Origin: Candidatus Oscillochloris fontis | GTDB lineage: Bacteria; Chloroflexota; Chloroflexia; Chloroflexales; Chloroflexaceae | Reading direction: 5' to 3' | Length of the DNA: 64,000 nt | NCBI RefSeq assembly: GCF_004138135.1 | Contig: NZ_RYFD01000004.1 | Coordinates: 1 to 64,000 of the forward strand | Part shown: positions 17,356 through 63,379 of the stretch, piece after piece | How the letters are laid out: every line of letters starts with the position of its first letter | Position numbering within the stretch: position 1 is the stretch's first letter | Notes under the pieces: model-generated | What the model was told of the DNA's origin: nothing | Seen by the model: the letters and a program-made list of their open reading frames with translations, nothing else | The model's database searches: none | Translations under genes and position numbers: made by a program

Positions 17356-17420
17356 GGCTTCGACAAGCTCAGCCACCGCGCCGCTGGCTGAGCTTGTCGA
17401 AGCCGAGCTTGTCGAAGCCA
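17356..17420. repeat. GGCTTCGACAAGCTCAGCC inverted repeat (family D), copy 1
   Basis: GGCTTCGACAAGCTCAGCCA is followed by its inverse and then a partial third arm ending GCTTGTCGAAGCC. The same sequence is nested in another repeat at 26582-26638. Confidence 0.8.
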
Positions 17421-17583: not shown

Positions 17584-18519
17584 ATGCTCGCCACCACCTT
17601 CGACCCAGCTCTGCTCAGCTTCAGTGGGCATGAGACCTTCATCTTACGTAGTCACTGGCTCAAAAAAGCCTACGATCTGCTCCGCACTCAGCCCGATCTC
17701 TTCTTCCTCGAAGATGCCTTTGTGCGCTTGGGGGTGGGCAAGAATATGGCCCACTCCATCCGCTATTGGGGCCGCGTCTGTCATGTCTTTGAGCGTAGTG
17801 AAGATGGCGCGAGCTATCGCCCCACGTGGCTGGGTGATGCGCTGCTTGCCGATGATCAGGGCTGGGACCCCTTTTTGGTGACGCCCACTAGCCGCTGGTT
17901 GCTGCACTGGCAGATCTGTGCCGGGTCTGCGGCGGTGTTTACGTGGTTCTTCACCTTCAACATGCTGCGGCGCGGAGAGTTTAGTAGCTCCCAATTGGCG
18001 CAGCAGGTGAGCCATGTGCTGGCGCAGATTGGGGCGAAGGTGCCTTCGGCGGCGACATTGGGGCGCGATATTGATTGTATGCTGCGTTGCTATGTGCGCC
18101 CCTCTGCGACGCTGCGCGGTGCGCCGCTTGAGGAATCTTTGCAGTGTCCGCTGCACGATCTGGAATTGATCCAGATCTTGCCCGGTCAGGGGACGTACCG
18201 CCTCGCCGGGGGCGCACACGCCGATCTGCCCGATCAGTTGGTGGCGCTCGCGGCATGGTTTCAGGCACGCCACCTGGGGCGGGCCACGCTGGCCTTTAAT
18301 GATCTGGCGTATGCGGAACGTTCGCCAGGGCGGGTCTTTCGCCTGGATGAAGATTCGCTCTTGACCCGTCTGTTGCACATGGAGCAGATCACTCAGGGGC
18401 AGGCGACCTTCTCGGAGAGTGGCGGGATTCGGCAGTTGGCATGGCGCAACCTTGAGGATGCTGCGTATCCGCGTGAGCTGTTGCAGGCTGCGTTTGCCCA
18501 GGAGCGCCACTATGTCTGA
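17584..18519 (+). CDS. sspB: SspB-like DUF4007 protein of the phosphorothioation system
   Basis: 311 residues from the ATG at 17584 (LATTFDPALLSFSGHETFILRSHWLKKAYDLL). The N terminus with SGHETFxLR and the overall size match the DUF4007 family; SspB of the Ssp single-strand phosphorothioation systems is the member with a known role, as a nickase needed to insert sulfur into the DNA backbone. It is the first gene of a run followed by a large ATPase and a PAPS-reductase-like protein, the SspB-C-D order. An upstream TTG at 17551 is in frame but less likely. The sspB name rests on family and gene order. Confidence 0.8.
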   Translation: MLATTFDPALLSFSGHETFILRSHWLKKAYDLLRTQPDLFFLEDAFVRLGVGKNMAHSIRYWGRVCHVFERSEDGASYRPTWLGDALLADDQGWDPFLVTPTSRWLLHWQICAGSAAVFTWFFTFNMLRRGEFSSSQLAQQVSHVLAQIGAKVPSAATLGRDIDCMLRCYVRPSATLRGAPLEESLQCPLHDLELIQILPGQGTYRLAGGAHADLPDQLVALAAWFQARHLGRATLAFNDLAYAERSPGRVFRLDEDSLLTRLLHMEQITQGQATFSESGGIRQLAWRNLEDAAYPRELLQAAFAQERHYV

Positions 18520-21500
18520 ACGCCGCCTCCCCATGGTTGCGCCGCGTTTTACCCGTGCGGTGCATATCCGCCGCGATTTCCGCGATCTGCGCTACCGCCT
18601 CGATGGCTACCACGTGACGCCGCTGGTGCGTCAGGTGGCGGGGCGCATCGTGGCGGGGCTGGCGGCGCAGAGTGGCGAGCGTGCCTTTTCGCTGATTGGC
18701 CCGTTTGGAGCCGGGAAGTCGGCCTTTGGCCTCTTTGTGGCCCACTTCCTCCAGCGCAAACCCGAATCGCGCCAGCATCTGCTCGATGCGCTGCATGTGG
18801 CCACGCCCGATCCGCTCTTGCCGCTGGCTGCGCCGCGCATGGTGGTGGCGCTGATTGCGGGCAACAATAGCTCGCTGCGCCACGCCATCCTGATGGGCAT
18901 GCTGGAGGCGCTGGCCGATCCGCGTCTGCGTGCGCCGCAGCTTGATGATCTGCGTGAGCAGATTCGTCAGGCCAGCCGCGCTGAGAGCCTCGACCCGGAG
19001 CGGGTGGCGCAACTGGCCAGCCATGTGGCTGCTGCGCTGCGTTCGCATGGCGAATACCAGGGCTTGGTGCTGCTGATTGATGAGCTCGGTCAGTTTTTGG
19101 ACTATGCGGCGCGCCAAGATGAGGAGCGCGATCTCTTTGTGTTGCAGAGTGTCGCCGAGGCGGCGGCGCGCAGTGGTGAAGATCGGCTGCTGGTGATCAC
19201 GATTCTGCACCAGGCGTTTGAGCGCTACACGCTGAATGCGGGCCTCGCTCGGCGGATCGAGTGGGCCAAGGTGCAGGGTCGCTTTGTGGATCTGCCCTTC
19301 CAGGAACCCGCCAGCCAGATGGTGCGCATGGTGGCGCTGGCGCTGCGTCCGAGCGGCAAAGATCCCTATCAGGCGGCACGAGCGGTATGGGCGGAGCAGA
19401 TGGCGGCGCAGAGCGAGGCGCTGGGCTTGCGCCCGGTGGAGATCGCGGCCCACGAGTGGCCCCAGATCTTGGCCGATTCTTATCCCATCCATCCCACCGT
19501 GCTGGTCGCGCTGCCGCAGCTCTTCCGCCAACTCGCGCAGAATGAGCGCTCGCTCTTCGCCTTTCTGCACTCGGATGAGCCGTGGGGCTTGCGTGATGCG
19601 CTTCAGGCAGAAGCTCCGCCCGCCACGCTGCCGATCTACCGCCTCACCCACCTCTACGCCTATGTTGAAGCGAGTCTGGGGCCGAGCCTCTTTGCGCGTG
19701 CGCGGGGCCAGCGTTGGGCCGAGTTGGCCGAGGTGCGCACGCTGTTGGGCAACGGCGATCCCGCGCTGCTCGATCTGCTCACGGTGATCGGGACGATTGG
19801 GGCGATGGAGCGCTCCTCTGGCTTGCGCGCCAGTCAGGCGATCCTCGCCTTTGCTTTGGATGCGGAGGTGAGTGATGGGCTGTTGGCGCTGCAAGCGCGG
19901 CGCATGATCACCTTCCGCCAGCACCGCGATAGCTACATTATTTGGGAAGGCAGCGATCTGGATCTGGAGGCGTTGACGCAGGTGGCGCGCCGCGATCTGG
20001 GTGAGCGGGCCACCCTGGCCGGGTTGCTGCAACACCACGCCGACACGACCCCGCGTGTGGCGCGGCGGCATAGTTACCGCAGCGGGGCTACCCGCCTCTT
20101 TGCGGTGCGCTATCTCGATGCGGCGCAGCTCGATGCGCCTCCCGCCCCGACGGCGGGCTGCGATGGCGAGGTGGTGCATGTTGTGCCTAATGACGATGAC
20201 GATCTGCACCGTGCCGAAGCCTGGGCGCAGCAGGCGGCGCGCCGCGATGAGCCAGAACGGATTGCGGTGTTGCCCCAGCGCGTGCGCGAGTTGCGCAATG
20301 TGCTGCTCGATGTGGCTGCGCTGCGCCACTTGCTAGAGGAGCAGCCGGAGTTAGAACATGATCGCCCGGCGCGGCGTGAAGTGGCGGGACGGCTGATCGA
20401 GGCCCAGCAGACCCTGGCCGGGGTGATGAACGAGACCTACGCAGGGCGTCACGGGCGCTGGTTCTACCGCAGCCAGCCCCAGCCGATCTTCAGTGCCAGC
20501 CAGATTGATGATCTGCTCTCGCAGGCTGCCGACGCCACCTACCCGCAGACGCCACGGGTCTGGAACGAGTTGATCGTGCGCCGCCAACTCTCTTCGGCAG
20601 CGGCCAAGGCGCGCCGCAATCTGATCGAGGCCATGCTCGATCACCCCGACCAGGAGTTGCTGGGTATCCGTGGCTACCCGCCGGAGCGGGCGATCTATGC
20701 GAGTGTGCTGCGTATGAGTGGGCTGCACCGCCCCAATGCGGCTGGAGTGTGGGAGATCGGGCCACCCCCGGATGACGATCCGCTCCACCTACGCCCGGCG
20801 TGGTCGGCGCTGGAGGCGCTGCTGCTTGCCGAAGATGCGGAACCGCTGCCCCTAACCAGCCTCTTTGCCCGCCTTGAGGCCGCGCCGTTTGGGGTGAAGC
20901 CGGGGCTGATTCCGCTGCTCTTCATGGCCTTCTACCTCACCCGTGCGGGCGAGATCAACTTCTACGAGCGTGGCACCTTCGTTCCCGACCCCGACATGGC
21001 CACCTTCGAGCGGCTCTTGGCGCGCCCGGAGCCGTTTGGGGTACGCCTGTGCCGCGCCGACGGGGCGCGCTGGCAGGTCTACCAGCAGCTTGCCGCCGCG
21101 TTGGCTCCGGCGGCGCTCACCAAGCCGGTGCAACCGGCGCTGCTGGCGGTGGCCATCCCGCTGCTGCGCCAATACCGCCACCTGCCCGCCTACAGCCAGC
21201 AGACCAAGCGGGTGAGTCGGCAGGCGCAGGCCATCCGGCGGGCGCTGCGCGAGGCGCGTGCGCCCGATGAGTTGCTTTTTGAGCGCCTGCCCACCGCCTG
21301 CGATCTGCCTGCCTTCCGCGCCGATACCCAGGTGGATGCGCAACGGGTAGACGATTTTGTCAGCGCGGTGCTGGCGGGGATGCAGGAACTCCAACATGCC
21401 TACACGCACCTGATCGGCCAGATCGCGGCCCAGATTGAACGCGCCTTCGGCCTGCGCCAAGGATGTGCCGAGCTTCAGGCGCGCTACGATTTGATTGCCG

Positions 21501-21922
21501 AACGCAGCAACGATACCCAACTGCGCATGTTGGGGGTGCGCCTAGAGAACGCCAGCCCCGACGGGCATGCCTGGGTCGAGAGCATCGCCGCGCTGCTCGG
21601 CAAGCGGCCCCCGGAGCAGTGGGGGGATGACGATCTGCCCCGCTTTGAGGATGCGGTGGCCCAGTTGGGGCAACGCTTCCGCGCCGCCGAGGAGCTGGCC
21701 ATCATCGCCCAGCGCGTCCCCGCCGAGGCGGCGCTCCTGCGGGTGGGCCTCTCGAACGGGCAGCACGAGCGCAGCCGGGTGCTGCACATGGACCAGACCG
21801 ACCCCGCAGTGGCACGTTTGCGCAACGAACTGGGCGATCTGCTCCAGCGCCACCAGGGGCTGACGAGTGAGCAGCGGGCGGCGGCGCTGGCTGTTCTTCT
21901 GCAAGGCGTGTTAGAGGAGTAG
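18512..21922 (+). CDS. sspC: SspC-like large P-loop ATPase
   Basis: 1136 residues. Near the N terminus it has Walker A GPFGAGKS (residues 63-70) and, near 185, a Walker B-like LVLLIDELGQFLDY, reminiscent of BrxC/PglY-type ATPases; the rest is a long helical region with no enzyme motif I recognise. In Ssp systems the SspC ATPase works with SspB and SspD in DNA phosphorothioation. The ATG at 18512 overlaps the sspB stop by 8 bases and has AGGAG upstream. The TAG stop lies within a family B repeat, so the native C terminus may once have been different. Confidence 0.78.
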   Translation: MSERRLPMVAPRFTRAVHIRRDFRDLRYRLDGYHVTPLVRQVAGRIVAGLAAQSGERAFSLIGPFGAGKSAFGLFVAHFLQRKPESRQHLLDALHVATPDPLLPLAAPRMVVALIAGNNSSLRHAILMGMLEALADPRLRAPQLDDLREQIRQASRAESLDPERVAQLASHVAAALRSHGEYQGLVLLIDELGQFLDYAARQDEERDLFVLQSVAEAAARSGEDRLLVITILHQAFERYTLNAGLARRIEWAKVQGRFVDLPFQEPASQMVRMVALALRPSGKDPYQAARAVWAEQMAAQSEALGLRPVEIAAHEWPQILADSYPIHPTVLVALPQLFRQLAQNERSLFAFLHSDEPWGLRDALQAEAPPATLPIYRLTHLYAYVEASLGPSLFARARGQRWAELAEVRTLLGNGDPALLDLLTVIGTIGAMERSSGLRASQAILAFALDAEVSDGLLALQARRMITFRQHRDSYIIWEGSDLDLEALTQVARRDLGERATLAGLLQHHADTTPRVARRHSYRSGATRLFAVRYLDAAQLDAPPAPTAGCDGEVVHVVPNDDDDLHRAEAWAQQAARRDEPERIAVLPQRVRELRNVLLDVAALRHLLEEQPELEHDRPARREVAGRLIEAQQTLAGVMNETYAGRHGRWFYRSQPQPIFSASQIDDLLSQAADATYPQTPRVWNELIVRRQLSSAAAKARRNLIEAMLDHPDQELLGIRGYPPERAIYASVLRMSGLHRPNAAGVWEIGPPPDDDPLHLRPAWSALEALLLAEDAEPLPLTSLFARLEAAPFGVKPGLIPLLFMAFYLTRAGEINFYERGTFVPDPDMATFERLLARPEPFGVRLCRADGARWQVYQQLAAALAPAALTKPVQPALLAVAIPLLRQYRHLPAYSQQTKRVSRQAQAIRRALREARAPDELLFERLPTACDLPAFRADTQVDAQRVDDFVSAVLAGMQELQHAYTHLIGQIAAQIERAFGLRQGCAELQARYDLIAERSNDTQLRMLGVRLENASPDGHAWVESIAALLGKRPPEQWGDDDLPRFEDAVAQLGQRFRAAEELAIIAQRVPAEAALLRVGLSNGQHERSRVLHMDQTDPAVARLRNELGDLLQRHQGLTSEQRAAALAVLLQGVLEE

Positions 21923-21991
21923 GGGCGAAGCATCGCCCACCAATCGCCACCGTCTCCCCTGCCATCATGGTGGGCGATGCTTCGCCCCTAC
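21919..21991. repeat. family B inverted repeat, copy 3 (supplies sspC stop codon)
   Basis: Perfect 20-bp arms (21919-21938 and 21972-21991). As at the helicase gene, the TAG stop of sspC (21920-21922) is bases 2-4 of the repeat. It fills nearly the whole gap to sspD. Confidence 0.85.
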
Positions 21992-22021
21992 GGGATGATA
22001 AAGAAACCCGGAAGTACCCCC

Positions 22022-22852
22022 ATGGACGACGAACGCATCATCCAGAGTTGGGCCGAGCGCCCTGGCCGTCATATTGTCAACCTGAGCGGCGGCAAGGACA
22101 GCACCGCGCTGGCGATCTTCCTGCGCGACAAGATCCCGCAGGTGGAGTACCTCTTTTGTGATACGCACAAAGAGCTGAGCGAAACCTACGAGTACCTAGA
22201 TCGGCTCTCGGCCTACCTGCAACGCCCGATCATCAAGCTCAACGCCCAGCGCGGCTTCGACCACTGGCTCGATATGTATGGTGGCATGCTGCCCTCGGCG
22301 CAGGTGCGCTGGTGTACGCGCAAGCTGAAGATCGAACCCTTCGAGAACTACGTGGGCAGCGAGATCGTTTGGAGCTACGTGGGCATCCGCGCCGACGAAG
22401 CGCGCAGTGGCTATGTCTCGACCAAACCCAACATCCACCCGATCTTCCCCTTCAAGGAGTTCGGGTTGGGGCTGGGCGACATCGAGCGGCTTTTGGAGGA
22501 GAGCGGCCTGGGTCTGCCCAGTTACTACGAATGGCGCCAGCGCAGCGGCTGTTTCTTCTGCTTCTACCAGCGCAACAGCGAGTGGGTGGGCCTGATGGAG
22601 CGCCACCCGGAGCTTTTTGCGCAGTCCAAAGCCTACGAGAGCGAGCGTGGCGGCGAACAATTCACCTGGCGGCAGGGCGAGAGCCTGAGTACGTTAGAAC
22701 AGCCGGAACGAGTCGCCCAGATTAAGCGCGAGCATGAGCGGCGGATGGCCCGCGAGCGTGCCAACCGCCCCGACCGCCCCTTGATCGAGGTGATCGGGGC
22801 GGCATTGGATGCCGAGGATGATGATCAGGGGTGCGATATTTGCCATTTGTAG
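22022..22852 (+). CDS. sspD: SspD/DndC-like PAPS reductase-family sulfur transferase
   Basis: 276 residues. The PP-loop SGGKDST (residues 22-28) is that of the PAPS reductase/ATP pyrophosphatase family that includes DndC and SspD, which adenylate and sulfurate the DNA backbone. Cysteines in RWCTRKLK, in GCFFCFYQRN (CxxC) and in the C-terminal GCDICHL (CxxC) could hold an Fe-S cluster or carry sulfur. The ATG at 22022 was chosen because it starts just ahead of the conserved region; ATG at 21995 is possible. No cysteine desulfurase (sspA) is adjacent, so sulfur must come from an enzyme encoded elsewhere. Confidence 0.88.
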   Translation: MDDERIIQSWAERPGRHIVNLSGGKDSTALAIFLRDKIPQVEYLFCDTHKELSETYEYLDRLSAYLQRPIIKLNAQRGFDHWLDMYGGMLPSAQVRWCTRKLKIEPFENYVGSEIVWSYVGIRADEARSGYVSTKPNIHPIFPFKEFGLGLGDIERLLEESGLGLPSYYEWRQRSGCFFCFYQRNSEWVGLMERHPELFAQSKAYESERGGEQFTWRQGESLSTLEQPERVAQIKREHERRMARERANRPDRPLIEVIGAALDAEDDDQGCDICHL

Positions 22853-22889
22853 GACGCTGCTTCCACTTGGGTGCAAGAGAAGCCTCATG

Positions 22890-22971
22890 TTGACGCAAAG
22901 GCGCAAAGACGCAAAGGTTTTGATGGGAGCCGATATGGATGGGGCTTTGCGCCTTGGCGCCTTTGCGTCAA
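22890..22971. repeat. TTGACGCAAAGGCGCAAAG inverted repeat (family C), copy 1
   Basis: Left arm of repeated GCGCAAA/GACGCAAA units (22890-22917) pairs with a right arm ending CCTTTGCGTCAA (to 22971). It lies between sspD and sspF. Confidence 0.85.
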
Positions 22972-23019
22972 AACCGCGATGCTAGGAGAAGCGCGAACAT
23001 ATTGTAGGAGGAGTTGGCT

Positions 23020-24807
23020 ATGGCGAGTGTGAGCAATCCATTCGTTGACTACCTGAACCGCTACACCACTGCCTCGCCCGATCATGAGGCGGCCTTCGAT
23101 GAATTTCTCTCCCAGATCGCGCCGCCCTCCGGCCAGCCGCTGCACCTCCCAACCCAGGTTGAGAACTTCCTCAACGTGAGTTTTGCCCAACCCGATCCGC
23201 CCTCGGTCATCCTGACCGGCAATGCCGGGGATGGCAAGACCTACCTGTGTCGCCAGATCATCAACGCTACCACCAAGCAGCCGCTCCACGATTGGGAGCG
23301 GCTCCAGCACGAGCCGATCATGCTCAATGGGAAGCGTCTCTATGTGATCAAGGATCTCTCCGAGTTGGGCGACGCCCAGGGTACGGCGCTGCTGCACCGC
23401 GTGGCCGCAACCCTCAGTGGGGAGAGCGAGGAGCGCTACCTGATCGCGGCCAACGAGGGGCGGCTGCGGGCGCTGGCCGGTAATGATGTCACACTCGCCC
23501 CTCTCTACAACCTGATCCACGACCAACTCACGTTGGGTGAAGCCAATGGGGCGCGAGTCTTGGTGATCAACCTGACCAAAGTGACCACCTCCTCGTTCGT
23601 GCGCAAAACCCTGGAGTGGATGACCGCTCCAGTTCACTGGCAGGCGTGTGATGGGTGTGAGAGCCGCGCTGCATGCCCGCTGGCCTACAATGCGCGCCAA
23701 CTGAGCCAAAAACCCATTGCCGACCGCGTCCAGATGCTCTACCAACTCCTCGAACATCTGGAGATCCACGTCACCATGCGTGACATGCTCATCCACCTCG
23801 CCTATACCCTCACCGCCAACCAACGCTGCCAACACCTGCAACACATGCACGTGGCGCATCGGGATCTGAGTGCGCTGGTCTACTACGAAAATATCTGGGG
23901 CCACAATGGCCACCCCGACTTCCGGCGCAAGGCGAGTGTGGTGCAGCACCTAGAGCGTCTGCACATCGGCAACCACTCGCTCTTCGAGTTGGACAACTTC
24001 ATTGTGAGTGGCGGCGAGAGCGCAGAGGAGCAGGAGCAGCATCAGCGACTCTTTCCTTCCGATGTAGATCTGAACCAGCGCCGGTTTGAGCAGGAGCGCC
24101 GTGCATACATTGAGGGTGGTGCCGAAACCGGGGCGCAGCAAGAAACTCCTATGCTCGCGTGGTTGCCCCACTGTCGGCGCAAACTCTTCTTCGAGTGGCA
24201 CGCAAATCCACAGGTCAACCGGCTCATTCCCTTCCTCTTCTTGGCCGACTACCTCGATCTCCTTGAGAATGAACAGCGGCATAAAGAATCGATCCGCCGC
24301 GATCTGGTACTGGGCCTCAATCGCGCCTTCTCGCGGCTCTACCTGAATGAGCGCGACAACCTCTATATTACCAGCCAATACCTGCACAGTACCGAACAGC
24401 CGCGCCCACTCGTGCGCCTCACCATCCCCATTCAGGGCATTGATCTGCGGGTGGATCGGCGGAGACATGCTGCCTACAACTATGATCGTGCCGACCTCGC
24501 GTTGGTGATCGCGCCACCACCGGCGCTCACGATGCATGCCGGGGTGCCGCCCAAGCCAGAGAGTTGGCGCATGAACCTGCTGCTCTTCGAGTACCTCATG
24601 CGCCTCGCCCATGGCGGCACCTTCAATATTCTGGCCGAAGAGTGTGAACTGAGCGTGCGCAGCCTCAAAGATCGTCTGTTGCGTGCATTTGTGAGTGAAA
24701 CAGCAGCTACGGATCGGATGGTTGAGTTCTTCGTAGCTGAACAGCGCCGCTATGCGTTGCGCAAACTCAGTATTGATGAGCAGGGTACTATTCGTGCTTC
24801 GTTCTGA
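23020..24807 (+). CDS. sspF: SspF-like ATPase of the phosphorothioation-dependent restriction module
   Basis: 595 residues. Walker A is GNAGDGKT (residues 67-74). A Cys cluster C210-x2-C213-x5-C219 (CDGCESRAACPLAY) suggests a bound metal. The size and order (ATPase, unknown protein, FtsK-like translocase) match the SspFGH and DndFGH/DptFGH restriction modules, which attack DNA lacking phosphorothioates. AGGAGGAG (23006-23013) fixes the ATG at 23020. The symbol is given by gene order; sequence alone supports only a P-loop protein. Confidence 0.72.
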   Translation: MASVSNPFVDYLNRYTTASPDHEAAFDEFLSQIAPPSGQPLHLPTQVENFLNVSFAQPDPPSVILTGNAGDGKTYLCRQIINATTKQPLHDWERLQHEPIMLNGKRLYVIKDLSELGDAQGTALLHRVAATLSGESEERYLIAANEGRLRALAGNDVTLAPLYNLIHDQLTLGEANGARVLVINLTKVTTSSFVRKTLEWMTAPVHWQACDGCESRAACPLAYNARQLSQKPIADRVQMLYQLLEHLEIHVTMRDMLIHLAYTLTANQRCQHLQHMHVAHRDLSALVYYENIWGHNGHPDFRRKASVVQHLERLHIGNHSLFELDNFIVSGGESAEEQEQHQRLFPSDVDLNQRRFEQERRAYIEGGAETGAQQETPMLAWLPHCRRKLFFEWHANPQVNRLIPFLFLADYLDLLENEQRHKESIRRDLVLGLNRAFSRLYLNERDNLYITSQYLHSTEQPRPLVRLTIPIQGIDLRVDRRRHAAYNYDRADLALVIAPPPALTMHAGVPPKPESWRMNLLLFEYLMRLAHGGTFNILAEECELSVRSLKDRLLRAFVSETAATDRMVEFFVAEQRRYALRKLSIDEQGTIRASF

Positions 24808-24819
24808 TGAGGTAACGCG

Positions 24820-26496
24820 ATGACGAGCATCTATGGTGGGCCTGAAAGTACACAAAAAGAACAGTTCCCTATCGCAGCATGGATCTGGGGCCACCGGCTA
24901 CGCACCGGCCAGACCTGGATCGAATATATGCTCGAATTTCTCAGCGTCCTCTCCGGCTATGATTACCAACTCGGTCGTGGTCTGCGTGGCGGCGATGCGG
25001 ATCTCGCCTACTCCATCCCCAAGCGGCTGGGTCTGCGGCGCTTCATCTTCTACGATGGCCACGAGAAGAGCCGCGATAGTCGTGATACGCGTGCCCTCAA
25101 CGAGTTGCGCGACCAACTCAGACGCACCATGCCCACGCTCAATGGCCATGCGGATGCCGACCTGATGGAGCAGGTGCGTTCGCTACTGCGCTCCTTCTCG
25201 GCCATTGAAGAGGCGCGCTCCTGGTATGCCAAGGCGCTGTTTCCAGTACACGAGGAGTTCTTGCTCTGGGAGGCGTTGCGCAAAGGCTCAACCAAGAACA
25301 ACTATACCGCCTCGGTTGACGATCTCGAACTGTCCAGCCTCGATAAATCCATGGATTTCCGCGCCCGCAACTTCTTCGCCCGTGGCGGTGAGATCTACTA
25401 CCTCATCCTCTCCGCCGGTACCGAGCATGACCCGGAGTTGCGTAGCCGTATTGGCGAGCGGCTGCACCACCTGCTCACCAACCACAACACCACTCTGGGC
25501 CAGATCGCCCAGATCATTGACCGCACATGGAGCGATCTGGCACTCAATAGTGATCACGAGGGTATGATCACGGGCAAACTGGGCTGGATTCTCGATCCCC
25601 AATGCGCACTCTATCGCCAAATTGCCGAGGATCTGGATACCTTCCTCGATAACCAACTCGATTCGCTCGAATGCCTAGAGCTACTCGCCCACCTGATCAG
25701 TTTTCACATGCTGCTCTACATTTACCACCGTGCCCACCCGGCCAGCCACCCCGAAGGCCATGCGGCGGGGAGTTGTATTGAGGCGTGTCGTCCGGAGTTG
25801 CTAATAGATGTGCTGGGCGAGCAGGATGGCGGCATTATGCGCAACCAATCGGCGCGCAGCCTGCGCCAGCACGAGGATTGGCAACTTCAGCAGGCGTACA
25901 GTTTCATTAACCAGAAGATTAGTACCTGGGTCAATCAATATGCGGGTGCTCCCGATCTGCACGAGCGGCTTGATGAAGAGATTCGCCAATTTTTCAGTAC
26001 CAGTGGTCGCAAGATCAAGCAAGACTATGACGCGCAGATCAAGGCAGTCGAGCGAAAATACGATCCAACCGCAACGGATCGTGATCTCCTGATCCAAATC
26101 TACAGCCAGACCGTCTTTAGCGTACTCGAATCGGAATTCCGCAAGAACTTCCTCAGCGTCCACCGCAAGATCGGGCGCGCCATTGGCATGATCGCGCCGC
26201 GCAAGGGGCCGCAGCCGCGCTTTGTTTTGGGCGATACGCTGCTCAAAACGCTGATTATGGCGCTCTTGCCGCGCAACGCCCCGCCCATCCCCTTCGGGAC
26301 GCTGCTCGAACGGCTCTACGAGCGCTATGGCATCATCATCGGGCCGGGTGAGGTGAGTAAGGCCGGGTTGTTGGAGCGCCTGCGTATCAACGAGGAGTAC
26401 TACACCCGCAACCGCGATGCCCTGCGCGACCGCATGTTGCGCGCTGGGTTGCTTCAGCACTATTCGGATGCAACGGCATTGGTGCAGCGGGGTTAA
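24820..26496 (+). CDS. sspG: SspG-like protein of the restriction module
   Basis: 558 residues, no P-loop, no membrane helix, mainly helical. The N-terminal part has a conserved-looking segment (AAWIWGHRLRTGQTWIEYMLEFL). By position between the ATPase and the FtsK-like gene it corresponds to SspG (DptG-like). Its biochemical role is not evident from motifs. It begins 12 bases after sspF, with GAGG 9 bases upstream, so the two are co-transcribed. Confidence 0.68.
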   Translation: MTSIYGGPESTQKEQFPIAAWIWGHRLRTGQTWIEYMLEFLSVLSGYDYQLGRGLRGGDADLAYSIPKRLGLRRFIFYDGHEKSRDSRDTRALNELRDQLRRTMPTLNGHADADLMEQVRSLLRSFSAIEEARSWYAKALFPVHEEFLLWEALRKGSTKNNYTASVDDLELSSLDKSMDFRARNFFARGGEIYYLILSAGTEHDPELRSRIGERLHHLLTNHNTTLGQIAQIIDRTWSDLALNSDHEGMITGKLGWILDPQCALYRQIAEDLDTFLDNQLDSLECLELLAHLISFHMLLYIYHRAHPASHPEGHAAGSCIEACRPELLIDVLGEQDGGIMRNQSARSLRQHEDWQLQQAYSFINQKISTWVNQYAGAPDLHERLDEEIRQFFSTSGRKIKQDYDAQIKAVERKYDPTATDRDLLIQIYSQTVFSVLESEFRKNFLSVHRKIGRAIGMIAPRKGPQPRFVLGDTLLKTLIMALLPRNAPPIPFGTLLERLYERYGIIIGPGEVSKAGLLERLRINEEYYTRNRDALRDRMLRAGLLQHYSDATALVQRG

Positions 26497-26518
26497 TTGG
26501 GTAGCTCAAAGCCCCTTG

Positions 26519-26659
26519 TTGACGCAAAGGCGCAATGACGCAAAGGTTTGTTCGTGTGAAAACATTCTGCGATGCGCCGTATGGCTTCGACAAGCTCAGC
26601 CATCGGCGCGGTGGCGGTGGCTGAGCCTGTCGAAGCCACCGCCAGCGTCTTTGCGTTAA
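26519..26659. repeat. nested repeat: family C split by family D
   Basis: The outer arms are family C (TTGACGCAAAGGCGCAATG... at 26519 and GCGTCTTTGCGTTAA ending 26659). The inner pair is family D (TGGCTTCGACAAGCTCAGCC, 26582-26601, and its inverse, 26619-26638). The arrangement suggests one palindrome inserted into the loop of another. Located between sspG and sspH. Confidence 0.8.
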
Positions 26660-26681
26660 ACCTTGGATGCAAGGAGAAGTT

Positions 26682-29600
26682 ATGCCTGAGAATACCGATT
26701 CCATAATCGCCGCTGCGCTGCGCCGCTATCTGGCGACAAAGATCCGTGCCTCCGCCAATACCCGCACCTTCTTCCGTATCTCCGGCTTCCGCGAAGCGGT
26801 CTACCAGGAGTTGCTCGCTGCATTAGCGCAAACAGCATGGCGGCTTGCCGAGAAGGATCTACTGGTATGTAGTATTGATCCCATCCCCGGCTATCCTGAA
26901 CAGGCGCTCCCAGCGCACCGCTCGGCCACATGGTACCGCAACACGGTGCAGGATGGGCAGGCGCTCATCCTCATCCAGAACCGCCGCAGTACCGATGCCC
27001 AGAGCCTCAAGGATCTCTTCTCGGTTACGGAAATGACCATCTCGCAGGATGGGATTCATGCGCTGCTCGATACCTGTTTCACCCACTACCAACTCAACAC
27101 CGAGGCCAATCAGCGCGACGGGATCATCCAATTTGTGCGCCGCTTTGCCAAGGTGATCCACGAGCCACAGTTGCGCGATCTGGTCGAGTTTTTGGTCGAG
27201 GTGGATCGCAGCATGGCCGAGCAACCCGGTATGGATGTGCAGCATGCTCTGGTTGGTGCGCTGCCCTGGCTGGGACTCTTCCGCTGCAAAGAGCTGGCGA
27301 CGGTGAAGAGTGGCCACAGCGACAAGCTCCTGCGCCAAGTCTGGAATGCTGCCCGCATTGGTGACGAGGTGCTGGAGGAACGTCAGTATAGCGACTATCT
27401 GGAGCGTCTTCAGCATGCAACTTTCGACGATCTGAATGGCGCTTCGGCTGCCCAGAAGCGCCACTTGCTGGCGCGTTTCATTGCCGGTGAACTGCGCAAC
27501 GACCGCGATGCGCAGTTGGAGGTGCTGAAGATTGATTGGGAAGAGATCAAGCAGATCATCCTGAGCAAGACGCGCAATACCGCCCAGCAGAAGTTGGCGA
27601 CGCTGGCTACCCAAATCCAGGTGTTAGCCGAAGAAGAGCGGCTGGGTGGTGACGATGTTCAGGAGGTACTTGATGACCTGCGCAATAGTACCGAACCCGA
27701 TCCAGAGACGCTTGACCGACTGCTGATCGAGCAGGGCGATGCGCTGCCCAAAAAACTGAAGACCGATCTCCAGCGGCTGGTCAAACCGCGTACCCAACGC
27801 CACACCGATTTCCTCGTCGGGGTGGTGAGTGTGGCCCTAACGCTACTCGCTCCGCACCAGCATGATCTGGTAGCCGGAACACGGCTCCAGGTGCAGGTCA
27901 ATCTGCGGGGGGCCAAGAAGAGTGAGCACCTCAATGAAGCCTGTGCCACCTTCCGCACCCTCTATGGGGGCATCGAGAAGGCATGGAAACAACTAGATTG
28001 GGATCTTCAGGCGCTCTGGGATCAGAGTGAGCAAGAGCCGAGTGGAGAAGAGGAAGAGGGCCAGAACGAGCCTGAACAGGAGCGCGAGATCCGTCAGGAG
28101 ATTCCCTTCCGCCTCATCCTGCTGGGGCCGGACGGGAAGGAGCGTAGCCGTGCCGAGTTGATCTGGATCTACCGCGCCGATAGCCCCGCCGGGGCCACCC
28201 ACCAGACCTTGGCCGCCGAGCGCAGGCAGATTGGTGCCAGCGAGCCATTGCGGCTGCGCGTGCCGGTCTTCAACACCTGCCCGGAGAGTAGCGTGATTGA
28301 TGATCTGGACATCAGCCGCCCGGTTCGTTCCTTTGGCGCATGGTTTGAGCAGGCCAATAGCCTCGCCGATCTACTCGAACGTAGCCTGCACAAGCGGGTA
28401 CAACCGGGTGTATGGCAGGTGGTGAGCGAGGCGCTGCGCAACCTCGAACATGCCTGGGCCGCCTTGGTGCAATCCAGCCAGCAGGGCTTGCTGGCTACAG
28501 ATCTGGAGCCGCTGCTGCACGCCTACGAGCACCTGCTAGATCGGGTGATTAGCAACTTTCAGAGTGGCAACGAGATCAGCTATGGCTATCGTGTGCTCAA
28601 CCAAGCCTGGATGATCAGCCACCCCCACGAACCCAACTGGGCGCTGATGCCGCTCTTCCACCCGCTCAAACTGCTCTGGTGGCGCGAGCGCAGCCGCTAC
28701 TTCAGCCAGATCCTGAGCCACCTGCTCGATCCCGCCACGCCCGCCACCATTGTGGACGAGCCGCGCTTCCGGCGCGAACTGCGGGCCACCTATGGCTCAA
28801 GTGGCTTCCCACCGCTCATCGCGCTGCCATTCAAGGACGGGAAGCCCGCCGAGTACTTTGTCGCCGCCGAAGAGAGCGATGGCTACGAACTCTTCTTCCG
28901 CGAAGCGCAACGCACCGATGCGTTTGGGATGGAGAGTGAAGACTCGGATGACGAACAGGAGATCGCTGCCCAACGTGCCGTTGAGGGCATTACGGCGGTG
29001 ATTCAAGACTACATCGAGACCTACCCGTTTGTGCGCGATGGCCTCGAAATCCTCCTCTTTGAGTGCCGCAACGGCGCACTGCCCGGTCTCCTCATTGAGC
29101 GCCTGCATCAGATCGGCAAGCGCCGCGATTGGCATGTGCGCATCAACATGGTGGTGCATACCACTGATCGCGGTGCGCCGATCTTCCGCCGCGTCAGCGA
29201 GTGGGTGGAGCGTGAGCGCCTGCCGAGTAGCCGCGAGGCGCGTACCTACTTCCCTTCGATTACCCTACAGGTGATGCAAGAATCTTCCCACACCGCCCTC
29301 TTCCAGCGCTGCGCAGATAGCGATCTGATCATCTTGGCCGATGTCTTGGCCGAACGCGGCCAACGGATGAGTGCCAAGATCGATCCCGACCTCGCTACCG
29401 ATCTGCCCAGTATGGGCTATCTCCCCACCTACCGAGCGCAGCAGGAACCCTTCCAAGTGGGTGAACTCCAGCGCAACTTGTTGCTCACCCCGCCCCACCA
29501 GCCGCGTATGAGTCGCCTCTTCATGCTCAGCCAGTATGCGGCCATCGAGCGCCGTAAAGTGCAACTCGACCAGCAGGCCCGCTTCTACCGCGAGATGAGC

Positions 29601-31910
29601 CTGGAGGCATGGCAGCCGGAGATTAGTGCCATGCATGACCACTTCAACTGGGTGGTCTGCTACGACCCGACGATTGACCGCTTCTTGATCGAGAGTACCT
29701 TCCCCGATCAGGTGCAACTCATCCGCTACTCGCTGGGCCTCGGTGCCAAACGCCAACACAACCTGACCGTCTCTTCCTCCCATAAAGCTCAGGACATTGT
29801 GGTACGTCGCTTGGCCGCTCGCTTGGCGCAGATGTTGGAGCACCACGATTCGTCCGATTTCCTCCAGCATGTGGCCCAGCGTTTGGTGGAAGAGGCCAAG
29901 CTGATTTCGGGCGATATTGTGCTGCGTGCGGCTGGGCCGGGTATGTTCCTCAACGAACTGATTGGCCTGGTGAGCGCCAAATTTGCTACCGAGGAGCGCT
30001 ACCGTAGCAGCAATCCCGACACCCTCAGCACCTGGATTCTGCTCGATGATGTGGAACACTGGTTTAGTGGCAAATTCCCCGACCTGCTCTTTGTTGCGAT
30101 CTCCGCGAGCGAGAACGGCCAACTCAAGCTACACCTAGAGGTGATCGAGGCCAAATGTATTGGCGTACAAGCCTTTGATGCCGAAGCGCGTGACGCCCAA
30201 CACCAAGTATTGAAAGGCATACAACGCATTGGAAGCGCCTTCGCCAGTGGTGCGCAGCATCTTGACGCCCTCAACTGGTACGATCAACTCTACCGTGCCA
30301 TCGTTGGCAACCTTCAGGTCGAGATCGCCCAGGAAGAGGTGTGGAAACTCTTCCGTGAACACCTGCACCAAGGAGCCTTCGAGCTTGATCTGAGTGGCCA
30401 CACATGGGTCTTCTGCTACGATAGCCAAGCAGAAATTACCAACGGCCCCAGTGAAGATCACTTCGGCAAGGGCGAGAGCGATCTACCCCTCCTGGCCCAT
30501 CACTACGGGCGCAACGAACTATGTGCGCTGCTACGTCGCCTGATCGAGCACCACACTGGGCCTAGCCCGCATCCAGAGTTGTGGATACCGCGCCAGGCAG
30601 TAGCGACGCAAGATGTTGCGTCGCTACCGGGGACGCAAGATGTTGCGTCGCTACCGGGGACGCAAGATGTTGCGTCGCTACCGGGGACGCAAGATGTTGC
30701 GTCGCTACCGGGGACGCAAGATGTTGCGTCGCTACCGGGGACGCAAGATGTTGCGTCGCTACCGGGGACGCAAGATGTTGCGTCGCTACCGACACAACCG
30801 CCCCCACCCGACAAAACCGTAACCGAACACGAATCCGAATGGGTAGCCAACAAAGCCCGCGACCTTGAACGAGTCCTGCGGCGGCGCGGCATCCAGATCA
30901 TGAAGATCAACCCCGCCGACGCCGATGTTGGCCCCAGCATCGTGCGCTTCAAGTTCCGCTTGGCCGGTAACGAGTCGCTCAAAAAGGTGCAGGCGATGGC
31001 CGAAGATCTGGCCCGCGACTTGGCGCTGCCGGGGACACCCATCATTGATAACATCAGCCGCAGCACCTTTGCCGGGATTGATATTCCCCGCGAGCGGAGC
31101 GAAACCATCCCACTGCGCCCGCTGCTTGATGCGTTGGGGCAACCCGGCTCGGCTGAGTTACCCATCATCCTCGGCAAGACCCCCGATGGTAGCCTCATCT
31201 GCGAGGATCTGGCCGATTTCCCGCACCTGCTGGTGGCTGGCGCAACCGGATCGGGCAAGTCGGTCTTTTTGCGTAGCCTCCTACTCAGCCTGCTCACCCA
31301 GTATCGCCCCGGCGGCCTCGAACTGCTCATCGTTGACCCCAAACGCACCGACTTCACCTTCTTCAACCGCTTGCCCTACCTGCGTGGGGGTAAGGTGATC
31401 GTGGATGGCAACGAGGCCCGCACAGCCCTGCTCGAACTCGCCCGCAGCGAGATGCAGCGCCGCCAAGACCTGATCGCCAACCGCAGTATGCGCATGAAGG
31501 AATTTAACCAGCGTTACCCCGACGAAGCCCAACCGCCCATTGTGGCCCTGATTGATGAGTATGCCCTACTCACCAACATGATGGACAAAAAAGATCGCGA
31601 ATCCTTTGAACAAGATCTCATGATCCTCGCTGCTGCCTCGCGGGCGGTCAGCATCCACCTGATCATTGCCACCCAACACCCCAGCGCCGAGATCGTCACC
31701 TCCAAACTCAAAGCCAACCTCGATGCGCGCATCGCCTTCAAAGTGGCGACCAACACCAACTCGCGGGTGGTGCTGGACACACCGGGGGCCGAAAATCTAC
31801 TGGGCAATGGCGATATGCTCTTCCGGCGCAAGAGCGGCGAGATTGTCCGCATCCAAGCGCCATTTATGGACGAGATGGCGATGATGGAGTATTTGAAACA
31901 GATTGGGTGA
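26682..31910 (+). CDS. sspH: SspH-like FtsK/HerA-family DNA translocase with possible nuclease centre
   Basis: 1742 residues. The C-terminal ~350 residues are an FtsK/SpoIIIE-like motor: Walker A GATGSGKS near residue 1520, LIVDPKRTDF, Walker B VALIDEYALL, and the sensor-like IIATQHPSAE. Upstream, LLDDVEHWF (D1122/D1123) and LEVIEAKC (E1156-A-K1158) resemble a PD-(D/E)xK nuclease core. Between the two, residues ~1309-1370 are seven copies of TQDVASLPG from a 27-bp DNA repeat plus a proline-rich stretch, an evident flexible linker. The ATG at 26682 has AAGGAG upstream. Its 3' end overlaps the convergent DUF6544 gene by 47 bases. Confidence 0.8.
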   Translation: MPENTDSIIAAALRRYLATKIRASANTRTFFRISGFREAVYQELLAALAQTAWRLAEKDLLVCSIDPIPGYPEQALPAHRSATWYRNTVQDGQALILIQNRRSTDAQSLKDLFSVTEMTISQDGIHALLDTCFTHYQLNTEANQRDGIIQFVRRFAKVIHEPQLRDLVEFLVEVDRSMAEQPGMDVQHALVGALPWLGLFRCKELATVKSGHSDKLLRQVWNAARIGDEVLEERQYSDYLERLQHATFDDLNGASAAQKRHLLARFIAGELRNDRDAQLEVLKIDWEEIKQIILSKTRNTAQQKLATLATQIQVLAEEERLGGDDVQEVLDDLRNSTEPDPETLDRLLIEQGDALPKKLKTDLQRLVKPRTQRHTDFLVGVVSVALTLLAPHQHDLVAGTRLQVQVNLRGAKKSEHLNEACATFRTLYGGIEKAWKQLDWDLQALWDQSEQEPSGEEEEGQNEPEQEREIRQEIPFRLILLGPDGKERSRAELIWIYRADSPAGATHQTLAAERRQIGASEPLRLRVPVFNTCPESSVIDDLDISRPVRSFGAWFEQANSLADLLERSLHKRVQPGVWQVVSEALRNLEHAWAALVQSSQQGLLATDLEPLLHAYEHLLDRVISNFQSGNEISYGYRVLNQAWMISHPHEPNWALMPLFHPLKLLWWRERSRYFSQILSHLLDPATPATIVDEPRFRRELRATYGSSGFPPLIALPFKDGKPAEYFVAAEESDGYELFFREAQRTDAFGMESEDSDDEQEIAAQRAVEGITAVIQDYIETYPFVRDGLEILLFECRNGALPGLLIERLHQIGKRRDWHVRINMVVHTTDRGAPIFRRVSEWVERERLPSSREARTYFPSITLQVMQESSHTALFQRCADSDLIILADVLAERGQRMSAKIDPDLATDLPSMGYLPTYRAQQEPFQVGELQRNLLLTPPHQPRMSRLFMLSQYAAIERRKVQLDQQARFYREMSLEAWQPEISAMHDHFNWVVCYDPTIDRFLIESTFPDQVQLIRYSLGLGAKRQHNLTVSSSHKAQDIVVRRLAARLAQMLEHHDSSDFLQHVAQRLVEEAKLISGDIVLRAAGPGMFLNELIGLVSAKFATEERYRSSNPDTLSTWILLDDVEHWFSGKFPDLLFVAISASENGQLKLHLEVIEAKCIGVQAFDAEARDAQHQVLKGIQRIGSAFASGAQHLDALNWYDQLYRAIVGNLQVEIAQEEVWKLFREHLHQGAFELDLSGHTWVFCYDSQAEITNGPSEDHFGKGESDLPLLAHHYGRNELCALLRRLIEHHTGPSPHPELWIPRQAVATQDVASLPGTQDVASLPGTQDVASLPGTQDVASLPGTQDVASLPGTQDVASLPGTQDVASLPTQPPPPDKTVTEHESEWVANKARDLERVLRRRGIQIMKINPADADVGPSIVRFKFRLAGNESLKKVQAMAEDLARDLALPGTPIIDNISRSTFAGIDIPRERSETIPLRPLLDALGQPGSAELPIILGKTPDGSLICEDLADFPHLLVAGATGSGKSVFLRSLLLSLLTQYRPGGLELLIVDPKRTDFTFFNRLPYLRGGKVIVDGNEARTALLELARSEMQRRQDLIANRSMRMKEFNQRYPDEAQPPIVALIDEYALLTNMMDKKDRESFEQDLMILAAASRAVSIHLIIATQHPSAEIVTSKLKANLDARIAFKVATNTNSRVVLDTPGAENLLGNGDMLFRRKSGEIVRIQAPFMDEMAMMEYLKQIG
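30606..30791. repeat. 27-bp palindromic unit repeated seven times inside sspH
   Basis: Unit ACGCAAGATGTTGCGTCGCT plus ACCGGGG, contiguous and essentially identical, in frame as TQDVASLPG; the last copy lacks the final codon. Each unit contains the palindrome GACGCAA-GATG-TTGCGTC. A related palindrome lies in intergenic DNA at 63333-63379. Confidence 0.95.
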
Positions 31911-37104: not shown

Positions 37105-37107
37105 GGC

Positions 37108-37431
37108 CACCTTCGGTGGGGGTTCGGGGGCGGCGCAGCCGCATAGGCATTCGGTTACGCGTCGTATTGCACCCTGGTTGTTGACCACAGAGGACGCAGA
37201 GGAACGCAGAGGAAGAACCGGAGGTTGTACCCGCAGGTATCTCGAAACCCATCCCTCTGCGTACCTCTGTGTCCTCTGCGGTTGAGTTGTACCCGCAGGT
37301 ATCTCGAAACCCATCCCTCTGCGTACCTCTGTGTCCTCTGCGGTTGATATGCTTTACCATCAAGGATGCGGAGGGGCTTCACCACGATGAAGCCCCTCCT
37401 TAACCAAACGCCAATACGGCGGCAGCCGCCC
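37108..37431. repeat. repeat cluster: broken family A element holding a 62-bp tandem repeat
   Basis: A family A start (CACCTTCGGTGGGGGTTCGG, then GGGGGCGGCGCAGCCGC to about 37142) breaks off. A GCAGCCGCCCCCATT end reappears near 37424-37437. Between them lie ACAGAGGACGCAGAGG-type palindrome arms and a 62-bp unit present twice in tandem (37225-37286, 37287-37348). No gene is seen in this 333-base gap. Confidence 0.7.
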
Positions 37432-63332: not shown

Positions 63333-63379
63333 AGGGACGCAAGATATTGCGTCTTGCGTCTTGCGTCTTGCGTCTCTAC
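63333..63379. repeat. GACGCAAGATATTGCGTC repeat (intergenic relative of the sspH repeat)
   Basis: GTAGGGACGCAAGATATTGCGTC followed by three more TTGCGTC units and TCTACG. The palindromic core matches that of the sspH tandem repeat except for one base in the loop. Located between lysY and the convergent last gene. Confidence 0.75.

What the first reader, a model, noticed from the sequence alone, without database searches (positions are those of the whole stretch)
17584..31910. SspBCD-SspFGH phosphorothioation defence island without a local sspA
Seen: DUF4007-like protein, large P-loop ATPase, DndC/SspD-like PP-loop protein, P-loop ATPase with Cys cluster, unknown protein, and a 1742-residue FtsK-like protein, all in one direction. 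Known: sspBCD-sspFGH cassettes insert single-strand phosphorothioates and damage unmodified phage DNA. Inference: a full defence system in a phototroph, with sulfur supplied by a distant cysteine desulfurase.
Basis: partly seen in the sequence, partly recalled or inferred. Interest (0 to 1): 0.7.

Follow-up and report, generated by a model that had tools for sequence, protein, structure and literature searches.

The report
Ssp sulfur-DNA defence operon in phototroph
This is a complete, intact copy of a known bacterial anti-virus system that tags the cell's own DNA with sulfur and attacks untagged DNA; it is ordinary in kind, but model-based evidence here suggests which of its proteins cuts DNA and that its attack module resembles the separate Dnd system.

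Summary
Six intact genes at 17584-31910, all on the + strand, match SspB, SspC, SspD, SspF, SspG and SspH models over nearly full length, in the order of the described SspBCD-SspFGH phosphorothioate defence system (PMC8092258). No cysteine desulfurase lies in the 64 kb window. The genome has a class I desulfurase on another contig that fits the SspA model; it looks like a housekeeping gene, found in 57 of 61 genomes searched. This is not unusual: the founding system itself was shown with iscS rather than sspA. The host has type II reaction-centre genes. So this is a new member of a known kind.

Two inferences go beyond the papers I could search. SspG models to the DndG fold (Z 15.7, next hit 4.9). 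SspH carries a conserved acidic...D...ExK signature in a domain whose best structural matches are mostly PD-(D/E)XK nucleases, just before its FtsK motor. I therefore propose that SspFGH is a distant relative of DndFGH, with SspH as the cutter. In passing: a seven-copy 27-bp hairpin repeat expands the SspH linker, and relatives pair sspBCD with a PglZ-BrxL cassette. Phosphorothioate itself was not tested.

The parts
17584..18519 (+). sspB: DUF4007 protein, 311 aa (alternative start TTG 17551); DNA-binding and nicking subunit of the modification module
   Evidence: PADLOC SspB 6.3e-84, Pfam DUF4007 2.5e-69; solved Streptomyces SspB 6juf/6lb9 at E 1.3e-36
18512..21922 (+). sspC: large AAA+ (Orc/Cdc6, BrxC-like) ATPase, 1136 aa, Walker A GPFGAGKS, Walker B VLLIDE
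   Evidence: PADLOC SspC E=0 over profile positions 2-1053/1054; motifs
22022..22852 (+). sspD: PP-loop ATP pyrophosphatase, PAPS-reductase family, 276 aa (ORF opens at 21977); SGGKDS, C98, and CxxC...CxxC (C177/C180, C271/C274)
   Evidence: PADLOC SspD 1.1e-113; these Cys residues and the PP-loop are invariant in 15 homologues; only PAPS_reduct gene in the genome
23020..24807 (+). sspF: P-loop NTPase with Walker A GNAGDGKT and a Cys cluster, 595 aa (alternative start 23014)
   Evidence: PADLOC SspF 1.5e-273; Walker A, W207, C210, C219 near-invariant in 15 homologues
24820..26496 (+). sspG: 558 aa; predicted DndG-like fold
   Evidence: PADLOC SspG 1.9e-47 and 5.3e-45; model pLDDT 83.6, pTM 0.88; best structural match DndG 7exx, Z 15.7, 383 aligned, next Z 4.9
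26682..31910 (+). sspH: 1742 aa; large N-terminal part, PD-(D/E)XK-like domain, linker, FtsK_alpha and FtsK/HerA motor
   Evidence: PADLOC SspH E=0; Pfam FtsK_alpha and FtsK_SpoIIIE
29544..30566 (+). SspH residues 955-1295 (the segment modelled): predicted PD-(D/E)XK nuclease domain; acidic E1092 (codon 29955), D1134 (30081), E1156-x-K1158 (30147-30155)
   Evidence: D1134 and E1156 invariant in 12 SspH from several phyla, K1158 in 11 of 12; model pLDDT 85; VIA matches HamA, McrC, MspJI, Shedu, BsmI, FokI at Z 4.7-7.7, with no significant Foldseek hit
30605..30791 (+). tandem array, 27 bp x 6.9 copies, 100% identical, in frame (7 x TQDVASLP, SspH residues 1309-1370), made of the hairpin GTAGCGACGCAA-NNNN-TTGCGTCGCTAC
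   Evidence: 112 places in the genome with up to 3 mismatches, reversed control 0
30819..31907 (+). SspH FtsK_alpha plus FtsK motor (residues about 1380-1742; Walker A GATGSGKS at 1520, Walker B VALIDE at 1621)
   Evidence: (FtsK 2iuu at 1.8e-50)
17356..17404 (.). inverted pair of the palindromic repeat GGCTTCGACAAGCTCAGCCA upstream of sspB
26583..26637 (.). inverted pair of the same palindromic repeat inside the 185-bp sspG-sspH gap
   Evidence: the gap is about 5-30 bp in relatives

Best explanation
It is an SspBCD-SspFGH phosphorothioate restriction-modification system in a Chloroflexota phototroph. By homology: SspD receives sulfur from a cysteine desulfurase encoded elsewhere (most likely the class I enzyme at C127, because it fits the SspA model as well as the DndA model) and activates the DNA phosphate with ATP; SspB binds and nicks the target; SspC drives the complex along DNA; the product is a single-stranded phosphorothioate mark. 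SspFGH then damages DNA without the mark. My proposal for the effector, from models and conservation only: SspG is a DndG-like DNA-reading subunit, SspF a nucleotide-binding regulator, and SspH the executioner, in which an FtsK motor pulls DNA towards a PD-(D/E)XK-like nuclease domain that is held off until the mark is found missing. Shown here: gene content, order, intact motifs, the desulfurase elsewhere, conservation of the candidate catalytic residues. Inferred: every biochemical step in this organism.
For: Near full-length matches of five of six proteins to the Ssp models and strong SspG matches. Same gene order as in the described system (PMC8092258). PP-loop and all six SspD cysteines except none lost: C46, C98, C177, C180, C271, C274 invariant in 15 homologues. 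Walker motifs intact in SspC, SspF, SspH. SspB matches solved SspB 6juf. Single PAPS_reduct gene in the genome, so no DndC or BrxP as an alternative. No SspE, PglZ or BrxL in the window. Class I desulfurase L002 scores 1e-146 to the SspA model. SspH D1134 and E1156 invariant, K1158 11/12; structural neighbours mostly PD-(D/E)XK nucleases. SspG to DndG Z 15.7 against 4.9 for the next.
Against: No measurement of phosphorothioate or defence. The SspH nuclease call rests on Z values below 8, which the tool says can be chance, with no significant Foldseek hit and no Pfam nuclease match; one homologue (L036) has Q for K1158. Mostly helical models can reach Z near 14 by chance, so Z 15.7 for SspG is strong chiefly because it stands alone; no sequence-level link to DndG was found. 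Desulfurase substitution is not universal: in V. cyclitrophicus the sspA mutant lost PT although iscS was present (PMC7188994). The 185-bp gap with a palindrome before sspH could weaken co-expression.
Confidence: 0.85

Rival explanations
1. The modification half works, but the SspFGH half is wholly or partly silenced (hairpin array in SspH, palindrome insertion before sspH), leaving an orphan epigenetic mark.
For: Seven-copy hairpin array inside sspH; sspG-sspH gap of 185 bp against about 5-30 bp in relatives.
Against: sspH is open over 1742 codons with Walker and nuclease motifs intact; the array sits in a linker (residues about 1290-1387) that varies from 33 to 113 residues in 12 homologues without clear sequence conservation; 27 bp units keep the frame.
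Confidence: 0.1
2. A Type 4 BREX or other PT-linked system rather than Ssp.
For: SspB, SspC and SspD share homology with Type 4 BREX components (PMC12839542); SspC also matches a BrxC model at 8.9e-170.
Against: SspC scores E=0 (1172 bits) to its SspC model against 565 bits for BrxC; no PglZ or BrxL in the window; sspFGH present.
Confidence: 0.03
3. Sulfur comes from SufS (suf operon, L001) rather than from the class I enzyme.
For: SufS is present beside sufD and a SufU-like gene.
Against: SspA, DndA and the documented IscS substitutes are class I; SufS fits the SspA model only at 1e-48 against 1e-146 for the class I gene.
Confidence: 0.12

Closest known systems
SspABCD/IscS-SspBCD-SspFGH of Vibrio anguillarum FF-93 (PMC8092258)
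   Same: Same six genes in the same order; no dedicated sspA needed, iscS used instead; no sspE.
   Different: Distant host phylum; palindromic repeats in the sspG-sspH gap and within the SspH linker. Sequence identity to FF-93 was not measured here.
DndFGH (DptFGH)
   Same: Three-gene effector; SspG model matches DndG 7exx at Z 15.7 over 383 residues; DndH is described as a protein of about 1700 residues with a REase domain followed by a C-terminal HerA/FtsK domain (PMC10853773), the order proposed here for SspH.
   Different: No sequence similarity reported (PMC8092258) or found here; pairs with double-stranded PT.
Type 4 BREX
   Same: Shares homologues of SspB, SspC and SspD.
   Different: Needs PglZ and BrxL, absent from this window but present beside sspBCD in several relatives.
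MADS (mad7, mad8)
   Same: SspG matches MAD7 (NCBIfam 2.2e-11, below its cut-off) and SspH matches mad8 (5.7e-24, motor region).
   Different: MADS is tied to methylation, not phosphorothioation; scores are below those for Ssp.

Membership tests
SspBCD modification module | SspB, SspC and SspD as a three-gene operon | tested here: met
   adjacent or overlapping genes 17584-22852
SspBCD modification module | Intact SspD PP-loop and conserved cysteines; SspC Walker A and B | tested here: met
SspBCD modification module | A cysteine desulfurase (SspA or IscS type) in the genome | tested here: met
   Class I desulfurase L002 on C127, SspA model 1e-146; not local
SspBCD modification module | Single-stranded phosphorothioate at 5'-CCA-3' | not testable with these tools
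   Needs DNA from cells, LC-MS/MS
SspBCD modification module | Nicking activity of SspB | not testable with these tools
   Only homology to solved SspB 6juf/6lb9
SspFGH effector | SspF (Walker A), SspG and SspH (FtsK-like C-terminus) next to sspBCD | tested here: met
SspFGH effector | Damages DNA lacking PT, toxic without sspBCD, protects against phage | not testable with these tools
   Shown for FF-93 only (PMC8092258)
SspE effector | SspE in the locus or genome | tested here: not met
   No SspE match in the window; the genome's two GmrSD_N genes are NsnA-like, 474 and 488 aa
DndFGH | DndG fold | tested here: met
   SspG model to 7exx, Z 15.7, 383 aligned; predicted model only
DndFGH | Sequence match to the dnd_assoc_1 (TIGR03236) or PADLOC Dnd models | tested here: inconclusive
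   No TIGR03236 match in this genome or 399 others of its phylum, but nothing rang in the controls either; no Dnd model among PADLOC matches of 14 SspG
PD-(D/E)XK nuclease (SspH domain) | Acidic-D-ExK residues conserved and fold | tested here: inconclusive
   Residues conserved; structural matches consistent but Z below 8
Type 4 BREX | PglZ and BrxL with the PAPS reductase | tested here: not met
   Neither found in the window with relatives' proteins as queries

The most novel reading that the evidence does not exclude
SspFGH and DndFGH are one superfamily of effectors: SspG is a diverged DndG, and SspH like DndH carries a restriction-nuclease domain directly before a HerA/FtsK motor, so single-strand and double-strand phosphorothioate systems share one cutting machine fitted to different modification modules.
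Probability: 0.55. Interest if true: 0.55.

Novelty: new member of a known kind. Interest (0 to 1): 0.33.

Why it matters
As a locus it extends a known anti-phage system to a phototrophic Chloroflexota and shows that its distribution there is patchy, as expected of a mobile defence module. Of more general use is the proposal, from conservation and models, that SspH is the nuclease of SspFGH (the founding paper assigned no nuclease to any of the three) and that SspG is a DndG fold; both can be tested by single point mutants. The relatives also suggest a partner for part of the many sspBCD loci (about 84% in PMC8092258) that had no known effector.

Tried and rejected
SspD has no sequence relative in the PDB at E<=0.01. 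SspE in the genome: two GmrSD_N proteins are NsnA-like, not SspE. A second PAPS reductase or DndC: none. Empty insertion site next to pgi in sister species: only pgi and, in one, the DEAD helicase matched in the stretches fetched, so no empty site could be drawn. L003 (TIGR01976 family, no clear catalytic Cys in the expected place) and L004 (reads as a SerC-type aminotransferase) rejected as desulfurases. Sequence-level link of SspG to DndG and of the SspH domain to known nucleases: none in PDB sequences, Pfam or PADLOC. Foldseek gave no significant match for either model. No paper in the library holds both DndG and SspG, or SspBCD with BREX and PglZ; subscription papers, including the original SspABCD-SspE paper, were not available.
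Full report
OBSERVATION. The stretch 17584-31910 holds six ORFs on the + strand without internal stops. Pfam gives DUF4007, PAPS_reduct, FtsK_alpha and FtsK_SpoIIIE. SspB also matches the solved Streptomyces SspB, 6juf/6lb9.

INTEGRITY. SspD keeps the PP-loop SGGKDS and cysteines 46, 98, 177, 180, 271 and 274, all invariant in 15 homologues of the order. SspC (GPFGAGKS, VLLIDE), SspF (GNAGDGKT) and SspH (GATGSGKS, VALIDE) keep their Walker motifs.

HOST AND SULFUR SUPPLY. The window lies in a 4.46 Mb, 139-contig genome estimated 99.99% complete. Two adjacent reaction-centre genes (Photo_RC) on C26 agree with a phototroph. No desulfurase is in the window. The genome has a SufS in a suf operon (L001) and a class I, NifS/IscS-type enzyme (L002, C127) that scores 1e-146 to the SspA model and 6e-149 to DndA. 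The class I gene occurs in 57 of 61 genomes of the order whether or not they have sspD, so I read it as a housekeeping enzyme. The absence of a local sspA is not special: in the founding report SspBCD of V. anguillarum FF-93 worked with IscS, and the authors note that sspA may lie elsewhere (PMC8092258). Among 100 sspD loci held here, 33 have a class I desulfurase in the same stretch; these stretches differ in length and some are cut by contig ends, so that is a lower bound. A caution: in V. cyclitrophicus iscS did not replace a deleted sspA (PMC7188994).

DISTRIBUTION. SspD is found in 24 of 61 genomes of the order, SspG in 8 of 41 of the family and in none of five other species of the genus. 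The pattern is patchy, in line with horizontal spread reported for the family (PMC8092258). In relatives sspBCD sits beside sspFGH, beside sspE, or beside a cassette of a second DUF4007 protein, a small P-loop protein, a second SspC/BrxC-like ATPase, a PglZ-like protein and BrxL. In 80 loci from other phyla, 13 had SspF, SspG or SspH homologues (one of them, L056, is the same contig as a relative), 7 SspE.

HOW IT LIKELY WORKS. Modification follows from the families: desulfurase to SspD, ATP activation, nicking and recognition by SspB, movement by SspC, giving a single-stranded phosphorothioate (PMC8092258, PMC10853773). The effector was known to damage unmodified DNA but no subunit had been assigned the cutting role in that paper. 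Here, in 12 SspH sequences from several phyla, D1134 and E1156 are invariant, K1158 is kept in 11 and an acidic residue aligns at 1092, the layout of PD-(D/E)XK nucleases. The modelled segment 955-1295 (pLDDT 85.0, pTM 0.85) has its best structural matches to Hachiman HamA (Z 7.7 and 7.4), McrC (7.0), MspJI (6.1), Shedu SduA (5.9), BsmI (5.3) and FokI (4.9), among some unrelated rows. These Z values are under the tool's caution line of 8 and Foldseek found nothing significant, so the call is likely but unproven. The SspG model (pLDDT 83.6) matches DndG 7exx at Z 15.7 over 383 residues with 12% identity; the next match is 4.9. Mostly helical models can reach high Z by chance, but one isolated match to the equivalent subunit of the equivalent module is hard to dismiss. 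DndH is described as about 1700 residues with a REase domain followed by a C-terminal HerA/FtsK domain (PMC10853773), the order seen in SspH. I conclude that SspFGH probably works like DndFGH and may be its distant homologue; the two were reported to share no significant sequence identity (PMC8092258), and I found no sequence-level link either.

THE SspH LINKER. Between the nuclease-like domain and FtsK_alpha, all homologues have a poorly conserved linker of 33 to 113 residues. In this genome it contains seven identical 27-bp units in frame (30605-30791), each carrying the hairpin GTAGCGACGCAA-NNNN-TTGCGTCGCTAC. The hairpin family occurs at 112 places in the genome with up to 3 mismatches, against 0 for the reversed control; in a sample of loci most copies lie outside long ORFs. 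A second palindrome, GGCTTCGACAAGCTCAGCCA, forms inverted pairs upstream of sspB and in the 185-bp sspG-sspH gap, which is about 5-30 bp in relatives.

VERDICT. The system is a new member of a known kind; the general points of interest are the proposed nuclease in SspH, the DndG-like SspG, and the PglZ-BrxL partner of sspBCD in relatives.

Noticed in passing
window 30605-30791: Seven identical 27-bp units, each with a 12-bp-arm hairpin of a genome-wide palindrome family (112 places), inserted in frame in the linker of SspH before the FtsK domain.
   Followed up: partly
window 17356-17404 and 26583-26637: Inverted pairs of the palindrome GGCTTCGACAAGCTCAGCCA upstream of sspB and inside the sspG-sspH gap, which is much wider here (185 bp) than in relatives.
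   Followed up: partly
L035:7654-17769; also L033, L037, L038, L044, L048: In relatives, sspBCD or sspD is followed by a cassette of a second DUF4007 protein, a small P-loop protein, a second SspC/BrxC-like ATPase, a PglZ-like protein and BrxL: a recurrent Type 4 BREX-like partner, in L033 together with sspF and sspG remnants.
   Followed up: partly
L046:10422-12164 and L041:12611-14437: Histidine-kinase/MORC-type ATPase proteins (weak MzaB match for L046) lie next to or near sspD in loci without FGH, SspE or PglZ; L045 has a similar one after SspE.
   Followed up: no
L053:1126-2550 and L054:1060-2526: Two GmrSD_N (DUF262) proteins in the same genome that match the PADLOC NsnA model (2e-112 and 2e-116).
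   Followed up: no
window 41185-43261: Tandem array with period 153 bp, 13.6 copies at 81% match, in the region of an 815-aa ORF on the - strand.
   Followed up: no
window 37224-37347: Perfect 62-bp direct duplication at the start of a LuxR/MalT-type regulator ORF (34570-37314, - strand).
   Followed up: no
window 63347-63375: Short TTGCGTC tandem run, the same heptamer as an arm of the sspH hairpin repeat.
   Followed up: no
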